Below are positions 2,719 to 53,076 of a DNA stretch of 64,000 bases, piece after piece. The stretch is from Apostichopus japonicus (lineage: Eukaryota > Echinodermata > Holothuroidea > Aspidochirotida > Stichopodidae), in the NCBI RefSeq assembly GCF_037975245.1, contig NC_092564.1:28750984-28814983 (forward strand), read 5' to 3'. A model generated the notes under the pieces. It had not been told where the DNA came from. It saw nothing but the letters and a program-made list of their open reading frames with translations, and ran no database searches. Each line of letters starts with the position of its first letter. Position 1 is the stretch's first letter. Both the position numbers and the translations under genes were made by a program.

Positions 2719-2739
2719 ATGCCCTACCAACGAAAATGA
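2719..2739 (+). promoter_or_regulatory. Six-codon upstream ORF overlapping the main start codon
   Basis: In the exon 2685-2745 an ATG at 2719 opens six codons (M-P-Y-Q-R-K). It ends at TGA 2737-2739, which overlaps the main ATG 2736-2738 as ATGA. The main frame has an upstream TGA at 2703-2705, so the coding start cannot lie further 5' in this exon. An ATGA overlap is a known geometry for termination-reinitiation, so translational control is possible but only inferred. Confidence 0.6.
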
Positions 2740-5700
2740 TTTGGGGTAAGTGTGTTCTTTACATTTAAGAGTAAAGTGCTCTGATAGAAGGAAGACTTTG
2801 TTTGTTACTTGTAAACAATTCTACTGTTATGTCTATGGATTAGATTACGCTGGCAATTTAAAGCCTCATTATATTCATTCCATTATAAACACAAGCTAAC
2901 CAATCTCTAACTCTTCAATCATTTTTAATACAATTGTGCAGTACTTAGATAATCATAATGACAACGTACTTTTTTACCAAAATGTTGACCTAGATTGAAC
3001 TAATGATTCAAACCAAAACATTAGCGTCTCATCAAAACATGAATGATAACATGAGATATAGAGACTGGGTTTTTAGTTAGCAGTGTGGGATATTTTTCCC
3101 CTTCAATGTTAGTTTCACATTGTTTGTAACCTGAAAATCTTTTTAACCAATGGTGCTTGACATAGGGACTAGAAACAGAAAAGTTAATTAATCTGCCGGT
3201 GCATGCATCCAAGTAATGTTTTGATGGGATTTTCTTATAAAACACCAGTGTGTCTGTTTGTAGTTTTCGTTCACTTGTTCTCTGCACATGGGCCGAGTTT
3301 GGCAAAAAATATGTCATCGTGATTGTATGATTATTTACGACATAATAGTACCAAAACAGTTTGTGTAGGCCATCAAGATTGAATTCATAATGAATCTTTA
3401 AGCATCATATTGATCTTACAAGTCATAAGCCATGTGTGGAACAGCTCTGATGTAAAATTTGAACCAAGCTTAGATGTGTATTGAGGGCTCTATCTTTTGA
3501 TATGCAAGGAATTCAGAAGTGTAGAAAAAACCTTGTATTTCTTGCCAATATTCTGCTGTTTATTGTTTGTCTATGGTTCCACCATTTCATGTACATTGTT
3601 TAAAACAGGATAAAGTTTAACAATTTGATAATTGTGTGTTTCTGCTCCGTAATTTTTCTATAGTCGTCCTTTCTACTCTCTCATTAGGCAAAACCTTGGA
3701 TCCTGGGAAACTGTACACAGAAGTTGTACATACAGACATCCACCTGTCCATGGCTGCACTTGAAAGCAGGGGTGACCGAGGTAGGTCACCCTCGGGTAGC
3801 GACTGCAAAATGTTTCTCTGGATTTTATGTGGCAGGAATTCAGAGATTTCAGTGCTGTTGTAACTCTGAGCACAATTATTTAATTGTAGTAATAATTTAG
3901 TCTTTCAGTTGAATAGTTAAACTATGACAACATATTGTGATTAGTTTTTAATCCTGATCATGCACTTCAAATTATGAATTTTATTTTTAGATGAGCCTGG
4001 TTCAAATTTGCCAATTAAACCATTTGCAAAGTTGACATGTGCCACTTTTAGCTGTTATAAACATTCATGACAATATCATCTTGTATTTCTATTATGTAAT
4101 CAGTGTTAAGTGGCATTAGCTTTCTAAAATATCTTATGTTGAACAGCTTGTTGATGTATAGGCTATCTATGCTTGGAAGCATGCATCTTTTGTATGGAAC
4201 GCCAAAAGCGCAACGCATTTCGTTGCCTCGATCGATTTCGCCTCCTTCTATTTCGTTGCCTCCCTTTATTTCGTTGCCTCCTTTGATTTCGTTTCCTCCT
4301 TCTATTTCGTTGCTTCGTTCTATTTCGTTGTCTCATTCTATTTTGCTGCCTCGTTCTAATTCATTGTCTCCTTCGATTTCGCTTCTTCGTTCTATTTCGT
4401 TGCCTCCTTTGGTTTTGTTGCCTCGTTTGATATCGTTGGGCCTCGTTTGATTTCGTCGCCTCCTTCTAATTCGTTGTCTCCTTTGATTTCGTTGGCTCCT
4501 TTGATTTCGTTGCCTCGTTCTATTATCTACTATCGGTAACAAAAATGATTTCTTGACCAAAAGTGGCCTTAAAGTTTTAACCCCGATACGGACATCTCTA
4601 AACGCGCTGTATATACATAATGTGTAATGATCAGAAAAATGTAGGCTCCATAACTAAAGTTAATTGATTTTGAAGAAAAAAAAAATTAAACAGTTTTCTG
4701 GTCATTACACATTACGTATATATATGCGCGTTTAAAGATGTCCGTATCGGGTTAAAATTTGAGGCCACTTTTGGTCAAGAAATCATTTTTATTACCGATA
4801 GTAGAGATATACCACGTGAATGATGAACCTGTCTACTTTAATGTGGTGCTAACCGGACATCTCAATAGGCTCCATAACTCAACTTAATCGATTTTGAAGA
4901 ATAAAAAATTTAATCAATATTTTAAAACTTTTAGCCACTTTTGGTCAAAAAAAAAAATCGGCTTTGTTACCGATAGTAGGTATAACACGTGAAAGAAGAA
5001 ATTTTATTTTTTGATGTGATGCTAACCGAACCTCCTAACTAGGTCGATAACTCAAATTAATCGATTTTTAAATAATAATACGTCACTTTGGATCTTAACA
5101 CATTACCGCGCGTTTCGAGCTAATTTTCCCATTTGCATCCCACTCCTGTTAGGATCGAACGGTTTGTAGCCATCGAATTTCAATAAATCAAAGTGTTACT
5201 GACTGTTCTTTCATACCACGTGTAATAGGAATAACTTAACATCGTCATTGTACCTCTCTTGACTGTTGCATATTCTCATAAATTAATTGTTTAGACATTT
5301 GAAAAAAAAGAAATGGTATAAAAATTGTCGCAATTTACGCCTTTCTCCACAAGATTTGGTAGGATCACAAGTTTCAGTTCAATATGGATGCAGAAATCGT
5401 CCACCATTTAATTCCAAAATTATAACACATGAAAGAGCAACATCTTCTCTCTCATATGGTGCAATTATTGGCATTTTACAGTATTCATAGCGTTAATTAT
5501 TATCGCTTTAAAACAGGTACGAAAAAGTAACAGTCTTGTTATTGTCCGCTAATTTAGGCTGCCCTTAGTGGCTGCTGGGGATCCACTTTCCCGCCACAGC
5601 GTACCCAGCGCTCGTCACAGTGTACAAACATCAGTGGCCAACGGCGTGTAACGTTGATGTATACACTATTGGCTGCTGTTAGTGGCTGCTGTTAGTGGCT

Positions 5701-8700
5701 GCTACGTTCAAACAGGTGCTAGGCTGCTCAGTACGTGCTAGGCACTGTGATCGACCAGGTAACGTTCGCGTTAACCGGCCGGTCGCGACCGAAGGAGAAA
5801 AAAGCTCCGCCCACCAATGCATGCCTGCAATACCTAATTAACATAACCAGGCGAATTCAATCGAGGCAACGAAATCGAACGAGGCAACGATGTAGAACGA
5901 GGCAACGAAATAGGTGGAGGCAGCAAAATAGAAGGAGGCAACGAAATCAATGGAGGCAACGAAATCAATGGAGGCAACGAAATAAAAGGAGGCAGCAAAA
6001 TAGAAGGAGGCAACGAAATAGAAGGAGGCAGCAAAATAGAACGAAGCAACGAAATCAAAGGAGGCAACGAAATAAAGGGAGGCGACGAAATAGAAGGAGG
6101 CGAAATCGATCGAGGCAACGAAATGCGTTGCGCTTTTGGCGTTCCATACTTTTGAAGTGCAGTGGTGTAAGATCTTATCCCTCACGTTCACGTTCACGTT
6201 CAAAATTTCAGTCAAAATGTGGGTATCGTGTCAACGTATTACAAGAGGGAGACTCACACAGATCTGTGGCATGTTGGATGTCCCTTATAATAAGAACTGT
6301 TGTGGTGGGGGTTAAAGGTCATCTGCAGTTATCGATGGTCAAGGCTAAGATCATAATCATTTGCATTTAAAACAAAGTCAAAAGCATAAGATGTGTGGAA
6401 TTCTTAATCAGTCGCTCCAGAAAGGACATTGTAGAGACAGTCATTTTAATGTTAATCTCATTAGAAAGATAAATTGTGTTTGTAAACTGGAAGACTAGCA
6501 GTACTCTATTAATGAATGGTGACTACTTCATATTCATATTGTCAATAAGTGGAGGCTCACCGGCAACCCACATGTTGATAAAATGGATAAAATGAACTTC
6601 TCACTGGCATTAACCTTGGTTACAAGACACATCAGTTACTGTGCAGTCCAATAATATTTGCTGATATCAATGTGGGGCACATGTTAGGTACAGAAATCTT
6701 GCCAATTTTTAACAGATGATTTTAAGCGACTTATCATGTGTTTACTTTATGTACTTCATGTCTACTGCAAGGGCTTTTCCCTCATCTGCTGGCAAACGGA
6801 AAAATCCAACGGCATTTAGTCAGTAAATAGCCAAAAATTCTGGGTTGTGAGTTGGTCCTTGCTAAGGATTGTACTTCCTACTCATTAACATAACTACAAT
6901 TATTTTGTTTTGCATATGGCAGGTGCTGAATATAGCGGCTACTCTCAGGTGATGCTGAAAACAGCAGAGGCAGAATTCTTGCTCTGCACATTGGTTCATG
7001 GAATGATTTTTCAACAAACCTTGGATGTTCAACTCAAGAAAGGAGAAGAAATATCTGTCTACACAGAAGGGAAAAGTATGTGTTACACACCAAGTATATT
7101 TAATGTCTACATAATTTTGGGTATAAGAGATACCAGAATTAAAGTCTGACAGAAGTGGTTATCACATTAGAAAACTGGCCTGTAATATGTTTGCTGGAAA
7201 ATTAAATAATATTTTTAAACATATCTCAGGAAGGGAAATTATCGGTCATACACAACAAGTATGAAATGCACATTTTGTTTATGTTTGTTGACCTTTGAGG
7301 TTAGCAAGATTTTCAATTTCTGTAAATTCTGTTGACCACAAGTGAACTTTGACCCTCTCCAGTAATAACTTTATATTTTAACTAAATGCACATCCAAGTG
7401 CAAAATGTGCATTTACCAGTACAGACTATTGCCACCTTACTTTTTGACACAAAAGAGAATTGATTGATCCTTGAACTTCTGTAGGTGAGACAAGAAACCT
7501 TATGTGGAAGAAAGTAAGAACTGCTGAAATATTTAGTGGCAGCATTGTTCACCTTCATGCCCACAGTAACATACATAAAATATCAAATTTCTTCTAGTTG
7601 TGATTTTCTTCGCTGACAAACTGAAAATGCTACTCCACCCATAGAAACGGCTATATAAATGAAACATTCAAATGTCAAAACCTTTAGGAGATGATAGATT
7701 GTCATCAACGTTAAAAGTTTCAAGATCTCTGCCAAGTTGGTACAACCAAAAATGTCATTCACATTTTGCTTAATAATATCATATTTTGTCTTGTAGTTGA
7801 ATATATTGCTTCAGTTTTAAAGTAAATGTGGCAAACTATATATATCTTCTTTATTCCAGATAAAGTCCATCTCACTGGATATTCAATTTGCTTAGGAGAA
7901 AATCTTGTAAGTTCAGTTAGTGGACGGACAGGAAGAAGCAACAATCAAGATGGTGCCGCCCTTCATTCAGATTCAGACAGTGGTAGGTATGCTAATCAAT
8001 GACTACAAAATAACAAACTTACAGATTAGACAGTGGTAGGTATGCTAATCAATGCCTATCATATAACAAACTTACAGATTCAGACAGTGGTAGGTATGCT
8101 AATCAATGACTATAAAATAACAAACTTACAGATTCAGACAGTGGTAGGTATGCTAATCAATGACTATAATATAACAAACTTACAGATTCAGACAGTGGTA
8201 GGTATGCTAATCAATGACTATAAAATAACAAACTTACAGATTCAGACAGTGGTAGGTATGCCAATCAATGACTATAAAATAACAAACTTACAGATTCAGA
8301 CAGTGGTAGGTATGCCAATCAATTACTATGAAAATAACAAACTTACAGATTCAGACAGTGGTAGGTATGCTAATCAATGACTATAATATAACAAACTTAC
8401 AGATTAGCCAGTGGTAGTTATGCTAATCAATGACTATCATATAACAAACTTACAGATTCAGACAGTGGTAGGTATGCTAATCAATGACTATAATATAAAA
8501 AACTTACAGATTCAGACAGTGGTAGGTATGCTAATCAATTACTATGAAAATAACAAACTTACAGTCAGATTCAGAGAGTGGTAGGTATGCTAAGCAATGA
8601 CTATAAAATAACAAACTTACAGTCAGATTCAGAGAGTGGTAGGTATGCTAATCAATGACTATAAAATAAACTTACAGATTCAGACAGTGGTAGGTATTAC

Positions 8701-11700
8701 TATAATATAACAAACTTACAGATTCAGACAGTGGTAGGTATGCTAATCAATGACTATAAAATAACAAACTTACAGATTCAGACAGGGGTAGGTATGCTAT
8801 TAAATCAATTACTCTAAAATAACAAACTTACAGATTCAGACAGTGGTAGGTATGCTTAGCAATGACTATAAAATAACAAACTTACAGGGTTTGGTAGTTT
8901 CAGGGAGTTGACTTTGTATATATATTCATATCTGTTTCTCACATTTCAATGAGTTAGGTGAAAAGTGGAGGAAACATCTAACTTTTGTTTTGTGTTTTCA
9001 GTTGCAAGTTCCCAAGATGGGGTGCACTGCCCCGTGATCAAAACTGAATACCAAGAGTCGGAGTTAGAGGAGTTTTGGCAGGCCTCTAGGTCAGAGTCAT
9101 TTACAATGGCACCGTTACCCTGTGGAACATCGGACTTGATGCGTTGGGTGGAACTAAGGAATAGGACCATGGATGGCGTATCAAACTATGGACCAAGACT
9201 GGAAGGAGTACATGAGGCAACGAGATTAAATAGCTACACCTTATCACACCAGAGAACGAGCAAAAACCCAGAGAAGGATGTCACAAACTCTGCTTCTGTA
9301 GGTGCGTAGTATACCAGCAGTATCCTCCTCAATGTTTGTAGCGTATCTTAGCTTGCCGCTTTCTCCTTCCCTATAGTTATGCCTCAAGATATAGGGTCAA
9401 CTTAAGACATTTTTGACAAAACTCTCTAACACCTATATATGAACCACCTTAAAAATTGGACATCAACTGAATAAGGTAGATGTTGATGTATGAGATCATC
9501 AAGCCACCTGTGCTTCATTTCTTAAATGGTTTCTCTGTCTTTATTAAAATGCAATGCTGAATCTATAACATATTGAAAGTCTTAACATGACCTTATGATG
9601 TCATTAGTTTTAGTGTCAACATTGTTAACATTCTACCTTGAAAATAGGAAGCAGAAAACAAAGAGAAAGTAAAGGTTTTCAGATCTTAATGGCAACTATG
9701 ACATCACAGATACACAGCATGATAGCTTCTAGGCTAGGATATCTCCCACATCAAACAACATTTTTCATAGTTGTTTGATGGGGGAGATTGGGGGAGGGGG
9801 GGAGGGGGTTGCTCATTTCAACAATCTCTGCAATATGAGCCAAGGATAATGGTTGGGTTTGTGCCTCCTTTAGTGTTATGTATGACAATGCAAAAGTACC
9901 AACATGGAATTAATGTAAAACAATTTTGACAAAAAAACAAAAAATATACTAGTATGTGTTCAGTATGTAAACTCTTTGACATGAATAACAACTGCAGCCT
10001 CTGCATTAACTTAATGAGCATGAATAAGCCACTTTCCTGTTCTGAATGTTTTGTGTGCATCTTATTTTGGTTCCGTGCAGAAGAGAAAGAAATCTATGAG
10101 ACAGTGATGGTGTATGTGACACTTGCTTGTAAACAACGTAACTCAAAAAGTTAAAGAGGAATTCACTTCAGAGTTGGTATGTGGATCCGTCTTATTGAGT
10201 ACAAGAAGCCTTTTTGATTTCTGGGAAGTCCAATGGTCATATGGGGTCAATGGCTGTTATAGTCTGAAAACCTGGTTAACACCATAACTCAAAAAGTACA
10301 TCTTTGTCCAACTTCATACTTATTATGTAGATCCAGCTTGGTAAGTGTAGGAACTAAATTGAAATTGGTCGGGTCAAAGGTCATTTGTGGTCAACAGAGG
10401 TTAACTTCTGAAAACCTTGTAAATGTGATGACTTAAAAATGTCAATTTTTGCTGAAGTTCATTCTTGGTTTGTAGGTCCCCTTGGTGAGTACGAGAACTC
10501 TATTGAAATTGGTGGAGGTCAAAGGTCATTTGCAGTCAACATAGGTCATAGTCTGAAAACCTTCTAGCTATTTGCCCTTTGAAGCTATAAAAACATTTCC
10601 ACATTTTTCCGCTATCATGTTTCTCTTACTGTATATGAAGAGAAAGGAGGATTAGAAGCTTATTTTGACAAATGATGAAGCGTGAGTCTTTCAATGAACT
10701 TTTTTGGTTTGCAGCTGAGTTGAGACAGATGTTGAACCAGGATTCTGAGGATGACATTAGTTCTGGAAGTGAAGATGAAAGGCAGCCAAGCTCTGGGAGG
10801 GAAGCCTCATCCCCTAATCAGGACCAGATCGCAGCTCTCCATCAGTTAAAATCACCTCCTATTACGCAGAGAATCAATGCTGTGGTGGCTCAGAAAGGTG
10901 AGGAGGAGGAGGAAGAGTATGGCTGGCAGTGTGTTAAACTACTCAATGATTTGGAAAGTGAAATGTCTCCCACTATCTGGCATGACAGGACATACATCTT
11001 GGCAGTCCTCCAAGCTAGTCTAACAACTCAATTAAAGATTACTTGGGTGAAACAATTGACTTCATGGGAGACTCCCCTGTCAAGAGTAACTAAGGGGATG
11101 AGGGGTAACCCATAATAATATTGAAGTATCTTACTTCATGAATATAGACAAAAGTTGGATTTTCCTACCTCCATATTTCCCAGTTCCAAACAGGAACAAA
11201 ACAACACACATTTTGTTTATACTGGTATGGTGATGTTAGTACAAAAGAAGCATACTTTTGCATAACATTTACATCTGTTTGTCGTTAATATTCATCAAAT
11301 TGCAAGAAATGTGAAGGCACCAAACTTTCCATGATTTTCATTCTTGAGATATTAGGTTTGTCTCACTACATTCATAAAATCAGTTTTGGCCATCTAGCCA
11401 CTCTGAGCCACTTTGAGCAGAGTAAAGGTAAATTGTCAGTAGTAACAGTCCTTAGTCATTCCCTATCTTACAAGTGACACTGCAATTTTGTTGTGTTTTA
11501 TTTTGGCCATCCACACTGACTCCACTGTAGGAACCTACCCAGCAAAGTCCACATTGACTGTAGGAACCTATCCTTCAAAGTCATTGTTTTCTTTTAAAGG
11601 GAGAGAAATCCCTTAACTTAGGTCTATTCCTCAAGCTACTACAAATTTTCCTTTCTTCCTTCAGATAAATAAGGTAATCCTAGTCATCCGTGACTCAATA

Positions 11701-14055
11701 GGGGTATACCTCAATAACAATTACCACATGAGGGCACACTATCGGTCTGCATGTTATCACTACAGTTATTACTTCCTGAAGATATCATGTAAATTGTTAA
11801 TAGTAAACCTATGCAATCATAGTGCAGTATGCATGTGTTATTGATATATCGAGTAGTAAAACATGGATAGATCTCATATTTAGTATGTGGATTCTTCATA
11901 GAGTAGAAACACCATTGCCTGTTTTGGAGAATATCAGAACTCACCTGACATCAAGGTCTTGGCAACCTTAAAAGGATTGTCTGGTGGCCCAAAGAAGTTA
12001 CCTTAAAAAATAGTAAATAATTTTCCAAACATGTTGTCAAAGTATGAGAACGCTAATGTTACGTTTGACAGAGAAACGATTTTTTAATCGTTATGGATAG
12101 ACATTTCAAATATGATTTGAACAGTACAATACGTGACGTCAGCTCTGCCATAGCATATTGCGTCATAACCCACCCTCCGCACAGTACCTATACGGTAATC
12201 ACAACAAAAACAGCGTGTGTATACAGATAAATTTCTTCCTTAATTTCCGGTGAAATTTCTTAAAAATTAGATATGTTTTCAAAAACTCCTTAAGCCACCA
12301 TGTACTTGAGCGGTGGTTCCGTGGTCTTTGTGTAACACAAGGTAAATTTTAACAGCAGACTCTGAGTTGTTCAGGCTATACATCGCGCTATCCAGCTCCA
12401 ACGCGAAAAATGTTCGCATGTAGGCTGTACTCAAACGTTGACAATCGGACAGTTCTGCGAAGCCTAAGCTTTTCAGCGCTATATTCTGCTCTGACAACGA
12501 TTCGATCAATTTCTTCAATAATTTCCGGTGAAATTTTTTATAAATTAGATATGATTTAAAAAACTCCTTAAGCCGCAATATATTTAGTAGATCGGTGGTT
12601 TCGTGGTCTTTGTGTAACACAAGATAAGTTTTAACAGCAGGCTCTTCGTTGTTTATACATCGCGGTATCCAGCACCAGCGCGAAGAATGTTCGCGTGTAT
12701 AGGCTACTCTCACGTTTACAATCGGACAGTTCTGCGATGACATCGATCCCGCCAAGTTTCATCTTTCGGTTTAACGAATACTTTATAAGTTTCCTTTTAC
12801 TGTTAATTTGATCCGTGAATTTTATTTCAGCGAGTTCGAAGAACAGTTAATGAACTGTGGTTTGAGTGTGAGTGTACTATGTGTAACGCTATACAAGTAC
12901 ACCAACTGAGCATCGTAGTATATACGTTCGCGAGTATGTACGTTATATATATGAGGCAATTCAATGTGCTTACACGTGAGTTAATTTGCTGCGGAATTGG
13001 GAGTGCTAACTTCAAGTCGCCTGTTTTGCCTATCTGCAAGCACTACGTCAAACACCATATTGAAGCGTTCGAACAAACGGTACTTTTGGTGAGAAACTGG
13101 TGAATTTGAAAACCAGATTTCTACAAGAAGAAAATGTCGAATGGGGACAATTTTTACATGGTTAGAAAGAGAAAAATAATAACTACAAGGACAATGTATC
13201 AAAATCTTCCACCAGACAATTCCTTTAAAACCAGGATATCTAAAGTATGAAATCTTGGATGGTGTCTCATATTTAGTACACAGATGCCCCCATTATGTGT
13301 AGATGAACCCTATTGTTTGTATTAGGGGTAAAGGTCTTTTGAAATCAGAAAGCACCCCTTTTGAAAACCATGTATTACTGTTATCTGAAGATGTAAATCT
13401 GAAACCAGACTCTTTAATAGATTGAAATATTTATATGATCAAAACTTCAGTGCCTTTTTTGCATTTCTGGTTTTGTATAATTTGATTAAACGTTTGGTAT
13501 TCTTGGTCTCATGTTTCAGCAGCCCACCAAAGGACAGAAGAATCTGTGCAAAGCCGTGATCTTCCTCCAAATTCTTCCTATCAGAGGATATCAGAGCCAG
13601 TAGCCGCCTCTCAAGTATCGCCAGTACTTCAATTACAAGCTGCAATGCTTCAGAAAGCCTCATCTCAGGAGTGCAGTAACCATGACGAGGTTGTCACTCT
13701 ACCCATCCCAGCGCCCGTCAGAGGGTACCAATGCCAGTTTTGCTTCAAGTTATTTCGACATGTCTCCAATTTCAAGTCTCACCAGCTCATCCATACCAAC
13801 CTGAAACCGTACAAGTGTCGCTTCTGTGGTGTCGGCTTTAAGCAGACAGGTAACTTAAAAGCGCACGAGCGTATTCATACTGGTGATAGACCCTACAAGT
13901 GTTCCTACTGCGGTAAGCAGTTTGCTAGGTCCACAACCAGAAACACTCACGAGAAACTACACACAAATTCTGTGACGTACCGGTGCAATGTGTGCGACAG
14001 GATTTTCATGCATGCCAACTCATTGAAGAAACATCAGATGTTACATAAAACATAG
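2736..14055 (+). CDS. NPL-domain / four C2H2 zinc-finger protein (seven coding exons)
   Basis: The exons are 2736-2745 (5' UTR from 2685), 3664-3780, 6923-7075, 7860-7982, 9002-9301, 10715-10897 and 13520-14055. All have AG acceptors and GT donors (gtaagt, gtaggt, gtatgt, gtaggt, gtgcgt, gtgagg), and every intron is phase 1. Joined, they give 1422 nt, or 473 residues. Residues 1-104 resemble the nucleoplasmin-like (NPL) domain of FKBP39/Fpr3/4 and plant HD2 proteins: an initial M-x-W, LDPG, HLSMAAL, a TLDVQLKKGEEISVYTEG strand pair and HLTGYSI. Residues 130-134 are an SDSDS run, and acidic/serine tracts lie near residues 242-258. Four C2H2 fingers follow (C367/C370/H383/H387, C395/C398/H411/H415, C423/C426/H439/H443, C451/C454/H467/H471), with TGDRPYK-like linkers. 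NPL domains bind histones or pentamerise, and tandem C2H2 fingers bind DNA, so a nuclear chromatin role is inferred. A cDNA could reveal extra exons. Confidence 0.82.
4213..4523. repeat. 18-bp minisatellite, left foldback arm
   Basis: About 17 diverged copies of an 18-bp unit of the form TTCGTTGCCTCCTTCTAT. The period is a multiple of three, so apparent ORFs with a six-residue repeat run across it on both strands. These are by-products of the repeat, not genes. Confidence 0.9.
4527..4806. repeat. 280-bp palindrome inside the foldback element
   Basis: TCTACTATCGGTAACAAAAA near 4527 is inverted at 4787-4806, and the match continues through GGCCACTTTTGGTCAAG to a centre near 4640-4690. A third, looser copy follows at about 4861-4985. 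The transcript or single strand would form a very long hairpin. Confidence 0.8.
5853..6124. repeat. 18-bp minisatellite, right foldback arm
   Basis: About 15 copies of the reverse complement of the left-arm unit (GGAGGCAACGAAAT core). Order and variants near the outer end match the left arm, so the two arms are homologous and not independent expansions. Confidence 0.9.
7969..8888 (+). repeat. 54-bp array made of exon-end, splice donor and acceptor units
   Basis: The array starts with the last 12 nt of the 7860-7982 exon (ATTCAGACAGTG) and its donor GTAGGT. About 16 further copies follow. A typical unit is acceptor-like ACTTACAG, the 12-nt block, GTAGGTATG, CTAATCAATGAC (branch-point-like) and an AT-rich stretch. 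Intact 12-nt blocks occur at 8078, 8132, 8186, 8240, 8294, 8349, 8456, 8510, 8678, 8722 and 8834. Copies at 8025 and 8403 are 11 nt, and two near 8569 and 8626 read ATTCAGAGAGTG after a second AG. The implied introns are 42 nt. The array may be only an expanded exon/intron junction, or it may supply frame-neutral micro-exons. Confidence 0.88.
9742..9808 (+). other. Hairpin followed by a G-quadruplex-like run
   Basis: An 11-bp perfect inverted repeat CATCAAACAAC / GTTGTTTGATG (9749-9759, 9770-9780) extends outward with one mismatch through CTCCC/GGGAG-like flanks. It is followed at once by four G-runs of at least five bases. It lies in an intron of the NPL/zinc-finger gene, and its function is unknown. 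Confidence 0.65.
10140..10565 (+). repeat. Three tandem copies of a GGTCA-rich dispersed repeat
   Basis: Units of roughly 110-140 bp each run from an AACTCAAAAAGT-type start, through a TGTAGATCC/TGTGGATCC block, to a GGTCAAAGGTCATTTG-type block. Related units occur at 30885-31600, 52240-52275 and 61050-61180. The copy at 10516-10528 contains AGGTCAAAGGTCA, a perfect DR1 arrangement of nuclear-receptor half sites. Confidence 0.7.
11969..13228. mobile_element. Inverted-repeat element in the last intron
   Basis: TTAAAAGGATTGTCTGGTGG at the left is mirrored on the right by CCACCAGACAATTCCTTTAA, about 18 bp with one indel. The interior is more GC-rich than the flanks. It holds a palindromic TGACGTCA (12134-12141 region), a direct duplication and no transposase. 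A TTAA-like sequence occurs at both ends, but no clean target duplication could be fixed, so the superfamily is left open. Confidence 0.55.
12242..12735. repeat. Tandem duplication of about 275 bp
   Basis: AATTTCCGGTGAAATTT begins both copies (12242 and 12517). The copies stay alignable through GTGGTCTTTGTGTAACACAA and CAATCGGACAGTTCTGCG. A 158-residue minus-strand frame spans both copies, but I see no domain or splice context for it. Confidence 0.8.
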
Positions 14056-49100: not shown

Positions 49101-52100
49101 CAATTGGCATACTAATGTTTGGAATACACACTGAAGCATCCCTTTACAAAACAACACAAAGTTTAAATAGGAATATGGAAGACTTACATGACAAATTTAG
49201 GCCTGCAACGCAAATCAGATCTTTGACTCGTACATACAGATCAGACCTTTTACTCCTCATACACTGATCAGGTCTTTTACTCTGTACACACAGATCAAGT
49301 CTTTTACTCTGTACACACAGATCAAGTCTTTTACTCTGTACACACAGATCAAGTCTTTGACTCTGTACACACAGATCAAGTCTTTGACTCTGTACACACA
49401 GATCAAGTCTTTGACTCTGTACACACTGATCAAGTCTTTTAATCTGTACACACTGATCAAGTCTTTGACTCTGTACACACAGATCAAGTCTTTTACTCTG
49501 TACACACAGATCAAGTCTTTTACTCTGTACACACAGATCAAGTCTTTGACTCTGTACACACAGATCAAGTCTTTGACTCTGTACACACAGATCAAGTCTT
49601 TTACTCTGTACACACTGATCAAGTCTTTTACTCTGTACACACTGATCAAGTCTTTTACTCTGTACACACAGATCAAGTCTTTGACTCTGTACACACAGAT
49701 CAAGTCTTTTACTCTGTACACACAGATCAAGTCTTTGACTCTGTACACACTGATCAAGTCTTTTACTCTGTACACACAGATCAAGTCTTTGACTCTGTAC
49801 ACACAGATCAAGTCTTTTACTCTGTACACACAGATCAAGTCTTTGACTCTGTACACACAGATCAAGTCTTTTACTCTGTACACACAGATCAAGTCTTTTA
49901 CTCTGTACACACTGATCAAGTCTTTTACTCTGTACACACAGATCAAGTCTTTTACTCTGTACACACAGATCAAGTCTTTGACTCTGTACACACTGATCAA
50001 GTCTTTTATTCTGTACACACTGATCAAGTCTTTTACTCTGTACACACTGATCAAGTCTTTTACTCTGTACACACAGATCAAGTCTTTGACTCTGTACACA
50101 CAGATCAAAACTTTGACTCTGTACACACTGATCAAGTCTTTTATTCTGTACACACAGATCAAGTCTTTTACTCTGTACACACAGATCAAGTCTTTTACTC
50201 TGTATATACAGATCAAGTCTTTTACTCTTCACACACAGATCAAGTCTTTTACTCTGTACACACTGATCAAGTCTTTTACTCTGTACACACTGATCAAGTC
50301 TTTTACTCTGTACACACAGATCAAGTCTTTGACTCTGTACACACAGATCAAAACTTTGACTCTGTACACACTGATCAAGTCTTTTATTCTGTACACACAG
50401 ATCAAGTCTTTGACTCTGTACACACAGATCAAGTCTTTGACTCTGTATATACAGATCAAGTCTTTTACTCTTCACACACAGATCAAGTCTTTTACTCTGT
50501 ACACACAGACCAGGTCTTTGACTCTGTACACACAGATCAAGTCTTTTACTCTGTACACACAGACCAGGTCTTTGCCTCTGTACACACAGATCAAGTCTTT
50601 GACTCTGTACACACTGATCAAGTCTTTTACTCTGTACACACAGATCAAGTCTTTGACTCTGTACACACTGATCAAGTCTTTGACTCTGTACACACAGATC
50701 AAGTCTTTTACTCTGTACACACAGATCAAGTCTTTGACTCTGTACACACAGATCAAGTCTTTGACTCTGTACACACAGATCAAGTCTTTTACTCTGTACA
50801 CACAGATCAAGTCTTTGACTCTGTACACACAGATCAAGTCTTTGACTCTGTACACACTGATCAAGTCTTTTATTCTGTACACACAGATCAAGTCTGTTAC
50901 TCTGTACACACTGATCAAGTCTTTTACTCTGTACACACAGATCAAGTCTTTGACTCTGTACACACAGACCAGGTCTTTGCCTCTGTACATACAGATCAGA
51001 TCCTTTACTCTTCACACACAGATCAAGTCTTTTACTCTGTACATACAGATCAAGTCTTTGACTCTGTATATACAGATCAGATATTTGACTCTGTAAATAC
51101 AGACCAAGTAATTTACTCTGTACATACAGATCAAGTGTTTTAGTCTTCACACACAGATCAAGTCTTTTTCAAACACATGTCATAAGACCAGTCTGTGGTA
51201 GATATGGCGTTATGGACGTCTGGTAGGCCCAGGCTAAAGTTTACTGTCAGCTTAGAAATTAACTTGCCGTCTGCATACATTTTTCATGACTTTGTTGGAA
51301 CTACCAAGATATTGCATTTTTGAGCCATAATTAATTTTCTACAGTTTTAGCTGATAGATTTTATCTCATGTCTTACATCTTGACAGGTTCATCATATCCT
51401 AGCTGAACTAGTAATGGGGGGAATGGTCTTGGAGACAAATATGACAGAAATTCTGACGAGAATTGAGGAGCAAAGCAAGATAGAGAAACAAGAGGTGAGT
51501 GCAGTGTATTCAATGTTGAATGAATCCTGGTATATTTAGAATACTACTTGGAACTTCTGGGAATGAAGATATACTGGATGAGATGAGATGAGAGATGCAC
51601 ATATTCTTCACCATATGAAAATTCCTGCCAATATGGAAATCTCTAAGAAGACTAGGATAGCTTGTATTGATGTGTCATTTAACTTTAGTTGTTGTAAAGT
51701 ATGTACAGAATTAAGCAGAAAAAAATCACAAAATTGGCTTTAACAATAGCATTAAAACAATGTTCAGAGGAAAGAACTCAACACAAATACATCACTGTAC
51801 AAACTTTATCAATTGGCTTTAACAATAGCATTAAAACAATATTCAGAGGAAAGAACTCAACACAAATACATCACTGTACAAACTTTATCAACTTATAACA
51901 GAGATTGAATAGAATATTTGAAAATAAATTAACTTTTTACATTTTTGAGCTCTCAGAGTGTAAAATGTGAACATCTTAAAAGCTCTGTAGCTGAAGAATG
52001 ATCACTTGGACAAAGTTTGTATCGACCAATCAGTGCATGTCTTCCATTCCATACTTTTCAGTCTTTGACTATGATTGACAGTAATCAAACAGTACATGCA

Positions 52101-53076
52101 TGTAGGCATATTGATACAGCATTACACATCAAAATTCATTTGAAGTCACCATATGTCAAATGATACTCTGAAAACGGTCTAAACACTAACTAATGAATGT
52201 TACTCACAAGACGTTGATCCATCTAAGGAGTAGACGATACCTGGTATTATTCATGGAGGTCAAAGGTCATTTTTGTAATCATACATGATTACTACATCTC
52301 AAAGTCTTATAGTCTTACTGACACTGTGCATAAAGCATAGTAGGTATTCAAACTGCAATGTGCCACATATATATGTATTTGGATAGGTCTTTGGGCTATG
52401 AGATACATGGTAGGCTTACCCTACCAACATTAAACTACCACACAGGTTGGCACTCACCACTATGATCTCAGTGTGTTTGTCACTGTCAGTGTTTGCATAG
52501 ATATTGCTTTAAACAAATGTTTATAAAGAATATGTATGTGAGTTTGATAAGCAGTGTTTCTCTGCATTTGTGCTACAAGATCATTGCAAAGAGGTCAATA
52601 GCCAGTTCAGTAAAGCCTTTGTTGTACAGGTATTATACAGGTAATATACAGGTTATATGTACAGGTAATATACAGGTTATATGCATGTTATATACAGGTC
52701 ATATGTACAGGTAATATGTACAGGTAATATACATGTAATATACTGAGTAGGTTTCATAAGGGTGTGGTACTGTAAGGAATCTGTTAATATCTTTGGTACA
52801 GTTTATGGTACTGGCTTAATATATCTTTCAAGCTTTAAACAATTAGAACTATGTAAATGTATTTTTCAGAAATGCCTGAAGTTAGACTTCACATTCACCT
52901 AATGTACTTCATGAGCTGTCTTGATGTGGCATTGCTACTTCATGTTGTTTGTGTTTATCCCACAGGCTGGACTTTCTGCTGCACCAGCACGAGCTGCTGC
53001 TGCAGTCAAGAACATCAACTTGCCAAACATTTCCACAAGTAACATCCATCTTCCCAATCTGCCATCTTTCAAGTGA
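46147..53076 (+). CDS. AP3S1: AP-3 adaptor complex sigma subunit (six exons)
   Basis: The exons are 46147-46215, 47143-47234, 48109-48220, 48761-48832, 51387-51494 and 52966-53076. All have GT/AG borders (gtgagt, gtaagt, gtatgc, gtaagc, gtgagt donors). The joined 564 nt encode 187 residues, against 193 in human AP3S1. The protein starts MIKAILIFNNHGKPRL, continues IVRETFHLVSKRDDNVCNFLEGG and RHYATLYFVFCVDSSESELG, and ends NLPNISTSNIHLPNLPSFK. This is the longin-fold small chain of the AP-3 heterotetramer, which sorts cargo from endosomes to lysosomes and related organelles. The sequence fits vertebrate AP3S1 and AP3S2 about equally, so the symbol stands for the undivided invertebrate orthologue. 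Intron 4 carries a 2-kb minisatellite. Confidence in the exon structure is very high. Confidence 0.97.
49204..51170. repeat. 27-bp minisatellite in AP3S1 intron 4, about 73 units
   Basis: The unit is GATCAAGTCTTTGACTCTGT followed by ACACACA. Main variants are TTTTACTC for TTTGACTC, ACACTGATC for ACACAGATC, and ACCAGGTC. Because 27 is a multiple of three and the unit lacks stops in several frames, open frames up to 668 codons run on both strands. Rare variants (CAAAACTTTG at 50106 and 50349; CTTCACACAC at 50227 and 50470) recur 243 bp apart, so nine-unit blocks have been duplicated. Confidence 0.97.
51733..51890. repeat. 79-bp tandem duplication in AP3S1 intron 5
   Basis: ATTGGCTTTAACAATAGCAT to ACAAACTTTATCA occurs twice back to back with a single G/A difference, implying a recent duplication. 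Confidence 0.95.
52625..52745. repeat. Short ACAGGTAATAT / ACAGGTTATATGT array
   Basis: About nine copies of a 10-14 bp unit (TACAGGTAATA and TACAGGTTATATG) lie in AP3S1 intron 5. Confidence 0.85.

What the first reader, a model, noticed from the sequence alone, without database searches (positions are those of the whole stretch)
7969..8888. Minisatellite of potential 12-nt micro-exons encoding Asp-Ser-Asp-Ser
Each intact 54-bp unit has an acceptor-like ACTTACAG, a 12-nt block identical to the end of the upstream exon, the same GTAGGT donor, and a branch-point-like CTAAT. The 12-nt block is a multiple of three and phase 1/1, so each included unit would add exactly DSDS to an acidic, CK2-like serine tract between the NPL domain and the next exon. 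The array could be a tunable acidic-tract generator at the RNA level, a bank of competing donors, or a passive expansion of an exon/intron junction. Against splicing, the implied introns are only 42 nt and lack a strong polypyrimidine tract.
Basis: partly seen in the sequence, partly recalled or inferred. Interest (0 to 1): 0.85.

Follow-up and report, generated by a model that had tools for sequence, protein, structure and literature searches.

The report
Repeated splice-donor junction ("mirage") minisatellite
The end of one exon and the start of its intron have been copied about 17 times in a row in a probable sea cucumber gene; the copies carry good splice donors but poor splice acceptors, so this looks like a known kind of junction repeat rather than a machine for adding tiny exons.

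Summary
The array is real: 17 units of about 54 bp (7968-8887), starting with the last 15 nt of exon 4 of a gene whose 7 predicted exons code for 465 aa with an NPL domain and C2H2 zinc fingers. Of 16 copies after the true junction, 11 carry the exact 12-nt block, 12 are 12 nt long, 2 are 11 nt, 2 are 16 nt. On a splice model from this gene family, 14 of 16 donor copies score like good real donors; all 17 acceptor-like sites score below all 37 real acceptors. A paralog (L027) has an unrelated junction-spanning array with no AG before its exon copies, so micro-exons are impossible there. The anatomy matches lancelet "mirages", minisatellites over exon-intron boundaries whose reported RT-PCR suggests normal splicing. 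Best reading: a passively expanded donor junction, removed with its intron. Any later donor keeps an in-frame stop (DSDSGRYANQ*). Micro-exon inclusion is unlikely but not excluded: no RNA data. Human boundary repeats that do alter splicing are in print (PMC2812944), so donor competition stays open. The genome is probably Apostichopus japonicus, by size only.

The parts
2736..2745 (+). predicted exon 1 coding start (MIWG)
   Evidence: in-frame join; not confirmed by RNA
3688..3780 (+). predicted exon 2, NPL domain
6923..7075 (+). predicted exon 3, NPL domain
7860..7982 (+). exon 4, end of NPL domain and tail ending DSDS; its last 15 nt are the first part of the repeat
7968..8887 (+). junction-spanning minisatellite, about 54 bp x 17
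   Evidence: TRF; units; alignment
7983..9001 (+). intron 4 (phase 1), 1019 nt, holds the array
8036..8851 (+). 15 further GTAGGTAT donor copies (first base 8036 to 8846); the unit at 8403 has GTAGTT instead
9002..9301 (+). exon 5
10715..10897 (+). predicted exon 6, acidic and serine-rich
   Evidence: in-frame join
13520..14055 (+). predicted exon 7, C2H2 zinc fingers, stop
   Evidence: Pfam; join

Best explanation
This is a 5' splice-site-spanning minisatellite of the kind called a mirage in lancelets. A tandem duplication joined an internal point of intron 4 to the end of exon 4, probably at a shared CAG (exon ..TTCAG/ATTCAG.., intron ..CTTACAG), and the unit then spread to about 17 copies by slippage or unequal exchange. 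The acceptor-like AG before each 12-nt block is a by-product of where the join fell. In the RNA the first donor (7982) is normally joined to 9002 and the array leaves with the intron. Later donors are a cryptic hazard: using one keeps GRYANQ-stop in the message, predicting decay or an NPL-only fragment. Shown: anatomy, donor and acceptor scores, reading frames, a second such array in a paralog. Inferred: the history, the CAG join, and normal splicing (by analogy with lancelet RT-PCR).
For: The array starts inside exon 4. 14 of 16 later donors score 8.59 (above 20 of 28 real family donors; 98.9th percentile of 12,573 GT in the paralog loci); the other two score 7.82 and 4.01; the 17 acceptor-like sites score -1.2 to -6.2 against 2.9 to 14.9 for 37 real acceptors. 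Predicted U1 pairing is -11.4 kcal/mol, second to exon 1 among the donors of this gene tried. Joining 7982 to 9002 is open for 465 aa; the 5 later donors tried give a stop at codon 133. Paralog L027 has 9 copies of 23 nt of exon 3 plus its donor (one copy CAT|GT), and the 8 later copies are preceded by TTTAAATAC or TTTAAAATAC, no AG. Junctions inside arrays, 2 of 48 donors and 0 of 37 acceptors, do not exceed the background of about 5% of random positions. In lancelet Adh3, TnC, globin and PGBD5 genes such repeats are reported or held not to disturb splicing (PMC3087553 section 16; PMC3902484 passage).
Against: No RNA evidence. Variable human repeats at exon-intron boundaries are reported to generate alternative splicing (PMC2812944, passages). 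Splice-core columns vary less than the spacer (5 of 26 against 19 of 28, p=0.0004) and a 13-column invariant run (p=0.003) covers AAACTTACAG-ATT; counting substitutions only, the difference is 4 of 26 against 10 of 28 (p=0.12), because one 10-nt deletion made many spacer columns variable. Array starts near donors are more frequent than at random positions (4 of 48, p=0.008; 4 of 57 with a second sample, p=0.015; 3 of 56 without this locus, p=0.067), so arrays at donors may not be wholly neutral. The species is inferred.
Confidence: 0.8

Rival explanations
1. Micro-exon bank: one or a few 12-nt blocks are spliced in, each adding DSDS to the acidic tract after the NPL domain.
For: 12 of 16 blocks are 12 nt and phase 1-1; CTAAT lies 29 nt before the AG; strong donors; the acceptor-like AAACTTACAG is invariant in 17 of 17 units; acidic tails after the NPL domain are seen in several paralogs. 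The lancelet authors propose that a mirage's exonic part could become a real exon.
Against: All 17 acceptor-like sites score below all 37 real ones; adjacent introns would be 42 nt with donor-to-branch 13 nt, while 46 nt is given as the minimal productive distance in a human intron (PMC11291888 abstract) and 43 nt is the smallest human spliced intron named in the passages read (PMC4463651); 2 of 16 units shift the frame; the L027 array lacks the AG.
Confidence: 0.06
2. Donor rheostat: competing identical donors divert part of the transcripts to later donors or to intronic ends, giving a stop after DSDSGRYANQ and thus decay or an NPL-only protein; unit number would set the fraction.
For: 15 extra GTAGGTAT donors, 14 of 16 later units scoring 8.59; the in-frame TGA at 8000-8002 lies before every later donor; AATAAA at 8665 and ATTAAA at 8799 inside the array; human boundary repeats can change splicing (PMC2812944 passages).
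Against: Lancelet mirages are reported not to disturb splicing; no RNA evidence; exons extended by many units would be far longer than the A. japonicus mean of 194 bp (PMC10344927 passage).
Confidence: 0.12
3. The repeat acts through RNA structure, for example donor copies masked by pairing with ACUUAC.
For: GUAGGU can pair with ACUUAC; of 4 stretches folded, two lean towards more structure than shuffles (z -2.11 and -1.75).
Against: The other two do not (z -0.15 and +0.70); the first two overlap each other.
Confidence: 0.02

Closest known systems
Mirages: exon-intron boundary minisatellites of lancelet Adh3, TnC, globin (BflGb6, BflGb9) and PGBD5 genes (PMC3087553, section 16 read; PMC3902484, one passage)
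   Same: Tandem repeats that span an exon-intron boundary; many units carry AG/GT signals; neighbouring or distant units share variants; unit sizes there 10-72 bp (Adh3) and 150-160 bp (globins)
   Different: Another animal (probably a sea cucumber), another gene family, about 17 units; length instability and RT-PCR not tested here
Variable tandem repeats at exon-intron boundaries of human genes in segmental duplications (PMC2812944, passages)
   Same: Minisatellites at a boundary, repeat may be spliced out
   Different: There the repeats vary between recent paralogs and are linked to novel introns and alternative transcripts; none of that is shown here
Schistosome micro-exon genes (search listing and abstract starts only)
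   Same: Very small exons would add a few residues each
   Different: Listed as exons of 3-81 bp among long introns (PMC10526429 abstract start); here blocks are copies of one exon end with 42-nt spacers and weak acceptors
Intronic minisatellites linked to splicing decisions in C. elegans (PMC4039745, search listing only)
   Same: Intronic minisatellites near alternative splicing
   Different: Not described in the listing as copies of a donor junction

Membership tests
lancelet-type mirage | minisatellite-like tandem repeat that includes an exon-intron boundary | tested here: met
   (exon boundary predicted, not from RNA)
lancelet-type mirage | regular splicing is not disturbed | not testable with these tools
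   no RNA data; the open 465-aa frame only fits it
lancelet-type mirage | length instability between haplotypes or cells | not testable with these tools
   one haplotype only; variants shared by units 1 and 8, 6 and 10, 11 and 12 suggest turnover
functional micro-exon bank | usable acceptor before each block | tested here: not met
   0 of 17 acceptor-like sites reach the weakest of 37 real acceptors; a score, not an RNA test
functional micro-exon bank | block length a multiple of three | tested here: inconclusive
   12 of 16; 2 of 16 are 11 nt, 2 of 16 are 16 nt or 12 nt by a second AG
functional micro-exon bank | conservation in orthologs | not testable with these tools
   the genome has no relatives in this collection (note)

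The most novel reading that the evidence does not exclude
The array is a length-variable splice rheostat: the number of near-identical donors (and occasional inclusion of a 12-nt block) sets how much message makes the full NPL-zinc-finger protein, an NPL-only fragment, or versions with extra DSDS, and array starts are drawn to donors in this genome more generally.
Probability: 0.08. Interest if true: 0.7.

Novelty: new member of a known kind. Interest (0 to 1): 0.33.

Why it matters
It puts lancelet-type boundary minisatellites in what is probably an echinoderm, with two unrelated cases in one gene family. It gives a natural test of how a spliceosome picks one donor among 16 GTAGGTAT copies, and of the published idea that such repeats seed new introns and exons.

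Tried and rejected
RNA folding of the array: no consistent signal. Constraint on splice cores: p=0.0004 weakens to 0.12 when only substitutions count; the L027 control leans the same way (4 of 29 against 7 of 27 variable columns). Enrichment of array starts at donors: suggestive, not firm. The 11-bp TACAGGTAATA array at 52625 was looked at by eye for an exon before it; none recognised. The plasmid search was off target, no match. My draft said no such repeats were reported outside lancelets; reading passages of PMC2812944 showed human boundary repeats, so I dropped that claim and moved 0.02 of confidence from the best explanation to the rheostat.

Rows dropped or weak: of 19 exon 2 rows, 5 donors were not at the expected GT and L036 was dropped; L035 was dropped from the 15 exon 4 acceptors. 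Six AGTAAG donors were missed's model (28 donors) and added (48 donors). Exon 4 donors of 13 of 20 paralogs were chosen with the donor model itself, so they are not independent; none was placed in the 5 later loci. The second sample is 9 junctions judged by eye, one (L041 exon 2) without a clear donor. Some paralogs look like near copies (L018/L019, L024/L026, L040/L041, L035/L037, L036/L038). Genome-wide searches for close pairs of canonical donors or acceptors did not complete.

Full report
Observation. The array is at 7968-8887 with a 54-bp period, 17.1 copies and 90% matches. The first unit lies across the end of exon 4: CAG ATTCAGACAGTG is exon, GTAGGTATGCTAATC... is intron. Unit by unit, 11 of 16 later blocks are exact, 12 of 16 are 12 nt, 2 are 11 nt and 2 are 16 nt. 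The 24 nt across the junction recur perfectly 107 nt downstream. The unit was found nowhere else in the genome at the sensitivity.

The gene. Predicted exons 2736-2745, 3688-3780, 6923-7075, 7860-7982, 9002-9301, 10715-10897 and 13520-14055 join in one frame to a 465-aa protein. Pfam finds an NPL domain (PF17800, E 1.2e-17) in the product of exons 2-5 and C2H2 fingers in the frame of exon 7. By sequence the best of three weak hits among solved structures is the FKBP39 NPL domain (4ca9, E 0.0014). Exon structure rests on frame, splice sites and paralogs, not on RNA.

Splice signals. I used 28 donors and 37 acceptors of this gene family as a yardstick, exon 4's own donor left out. The repeated donor GTG|GTAGGT scores 8.59 in 14 of 16 later units, above 20 of 28 real donors scored by leave-one-out and at the 98.9th percentile of 12,573 GT; the units at 8776 and 8403 score 7.82 and 4.01. 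GTAGGT also ends exon 2 in this gene and in paralogs L022 and L027. The 17 acceptor-like sites score from -1.2 to -6.2, while the weakest real acceptor scores 2.9; they lie near the middle of all AG (median -4.0, n=12,574). The stretch between CTAAT and AG is rich in A, with no pyrimidine tract. So the units are donor copies more than exon copies.

Frames. Joining 7982 to 9002 is open. Reading on from exon 4 gives DSDSGRYANQ and a TGA at 8000-8002, before every later donor; the 5 later donors tried stop at codon 133. Adjacent-unit introns would be 42 nt with the branch-like A 13 nt from the donor. Published human data give 46 nt as the minimal productive donor-to-branch distance in EMD intron 5 (PMC11291888, abstract) and splicing of a 43-nt intron (PMC4463651, passages). 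Skipping units would give about 96 nt or more, so this speaks only against a ladder of adjacent units.

Constraint. Core splice columns vary less than the spacer (p=0.0004), but not clearly so when only substitutions count (p=0.12). The AAACTTACAG stretch is invariant in all 17 units, a fact that the passive reading does not explain except by chance or homogenisation.

Paralogs. The genome has 30 NPL matches over Pfam's cut-off, this gene included (30 of 34 rows; some may be other NPL proteins; the tool's 14 control genomes gave none). In the 25 paralog stretches fetched, 12 show C2H2 fingers downstream on the same strand within 10 kb (9 of 20, 3 of 5). One, L027, has its own junction array: 9 copies of about 56 bp, each with 23 nt of exon 3 and the donor; none of the 8 later copies has an AG just before it. 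L034 and L023 have arrays that start within 100 nt after a donor without crossing it. Two of 48 donors and 0 of 37 acceptors lie inside arrays, against about 5% of random positions; the 24-mer test gives the same 2 and 0 against 5.5-9.5%. Array starts within -30 to +100 of a donor: 4 of 48 (p=0.008), 0 of 9 in the later sample (by eye); 4 of 57 p=0.015, and 3 of 56 without this locus p=0.067.

Comparison. Lancelet genes carry minisatellites over exon-intron boundaries called mirages (PMC3087553, section 16 read; PMC3902484, one passage). The authors say their RT-PCR suggests no interference with regular splicing, report length differences between haplotypes, and propose that a repeat's exonic part might become a real exon. 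The present array fits the anatomical definition; splicing and instability could not be tested. Boundary repeats are also known in human genes of segmental duplications, where they can give alternative splicing (PMC2812944, passages). Searches listed no mirage, under that name, outside lancelets; the library misses most subscription papers, and the original Adh3 paper was not seen.

Organism. The held genome has 671,581,487 bases in 35 contigs. The A. japonicus assembly is given as 671.60 Mb (scaffold total 671,643,915), 34 scaffolds, 23 chromosomes of 18.21-46.02 Mb (PMC10344927, passages). Contigs seen here run from 18.96 to 46.04 Mb. Close, not identical: an inference from size only.

Verdict. 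A real and attractive member of a known kind of repeat. The micro-exon reading is unlikely; donor competition is open and testable.

Noticed in passing
window 2736-14055; L017-L041: An expanded family of NPL-domain genes, many with C2H2 zinc fingers (30 NPL matches over cut-off in the genome; 12 of 25 fetched loci with fingers downstream). A 2015 survey (PMC4414354, passages) names only nucleoplasmins, NPL-FKBPs and plant HD-tuins with a C-terminal finger.
   Followed up: partly
L027 2120-2623 (oriented as fetched): Second junction-spanning minisatellite, 56 bp x 9, over the exon 3 donor of a paralog.
   Followed up: yes
L034 2020-2442 and L023 4224-4621 (reverse strand of the loci): Minisatellites that begin 25 and about 70 nt after a splice donor.
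   Followed up: partly
window 4217-4524 and 5852-6124: Two 18-bp repeat arrays whose units look like reverse complements of each other, in intron 2 of the same gene.
   Followed up: no
window 49220-51168: 27-bp array of 72 copies, open for hundreds of codons in several frames on both strands.
   Followed up: no
window 52625-52743: 11-bp array TACAGGTAATA with donor-like CAGGTAAT in its consensus; no exon recognised before it by eye.
   Followed up: partly
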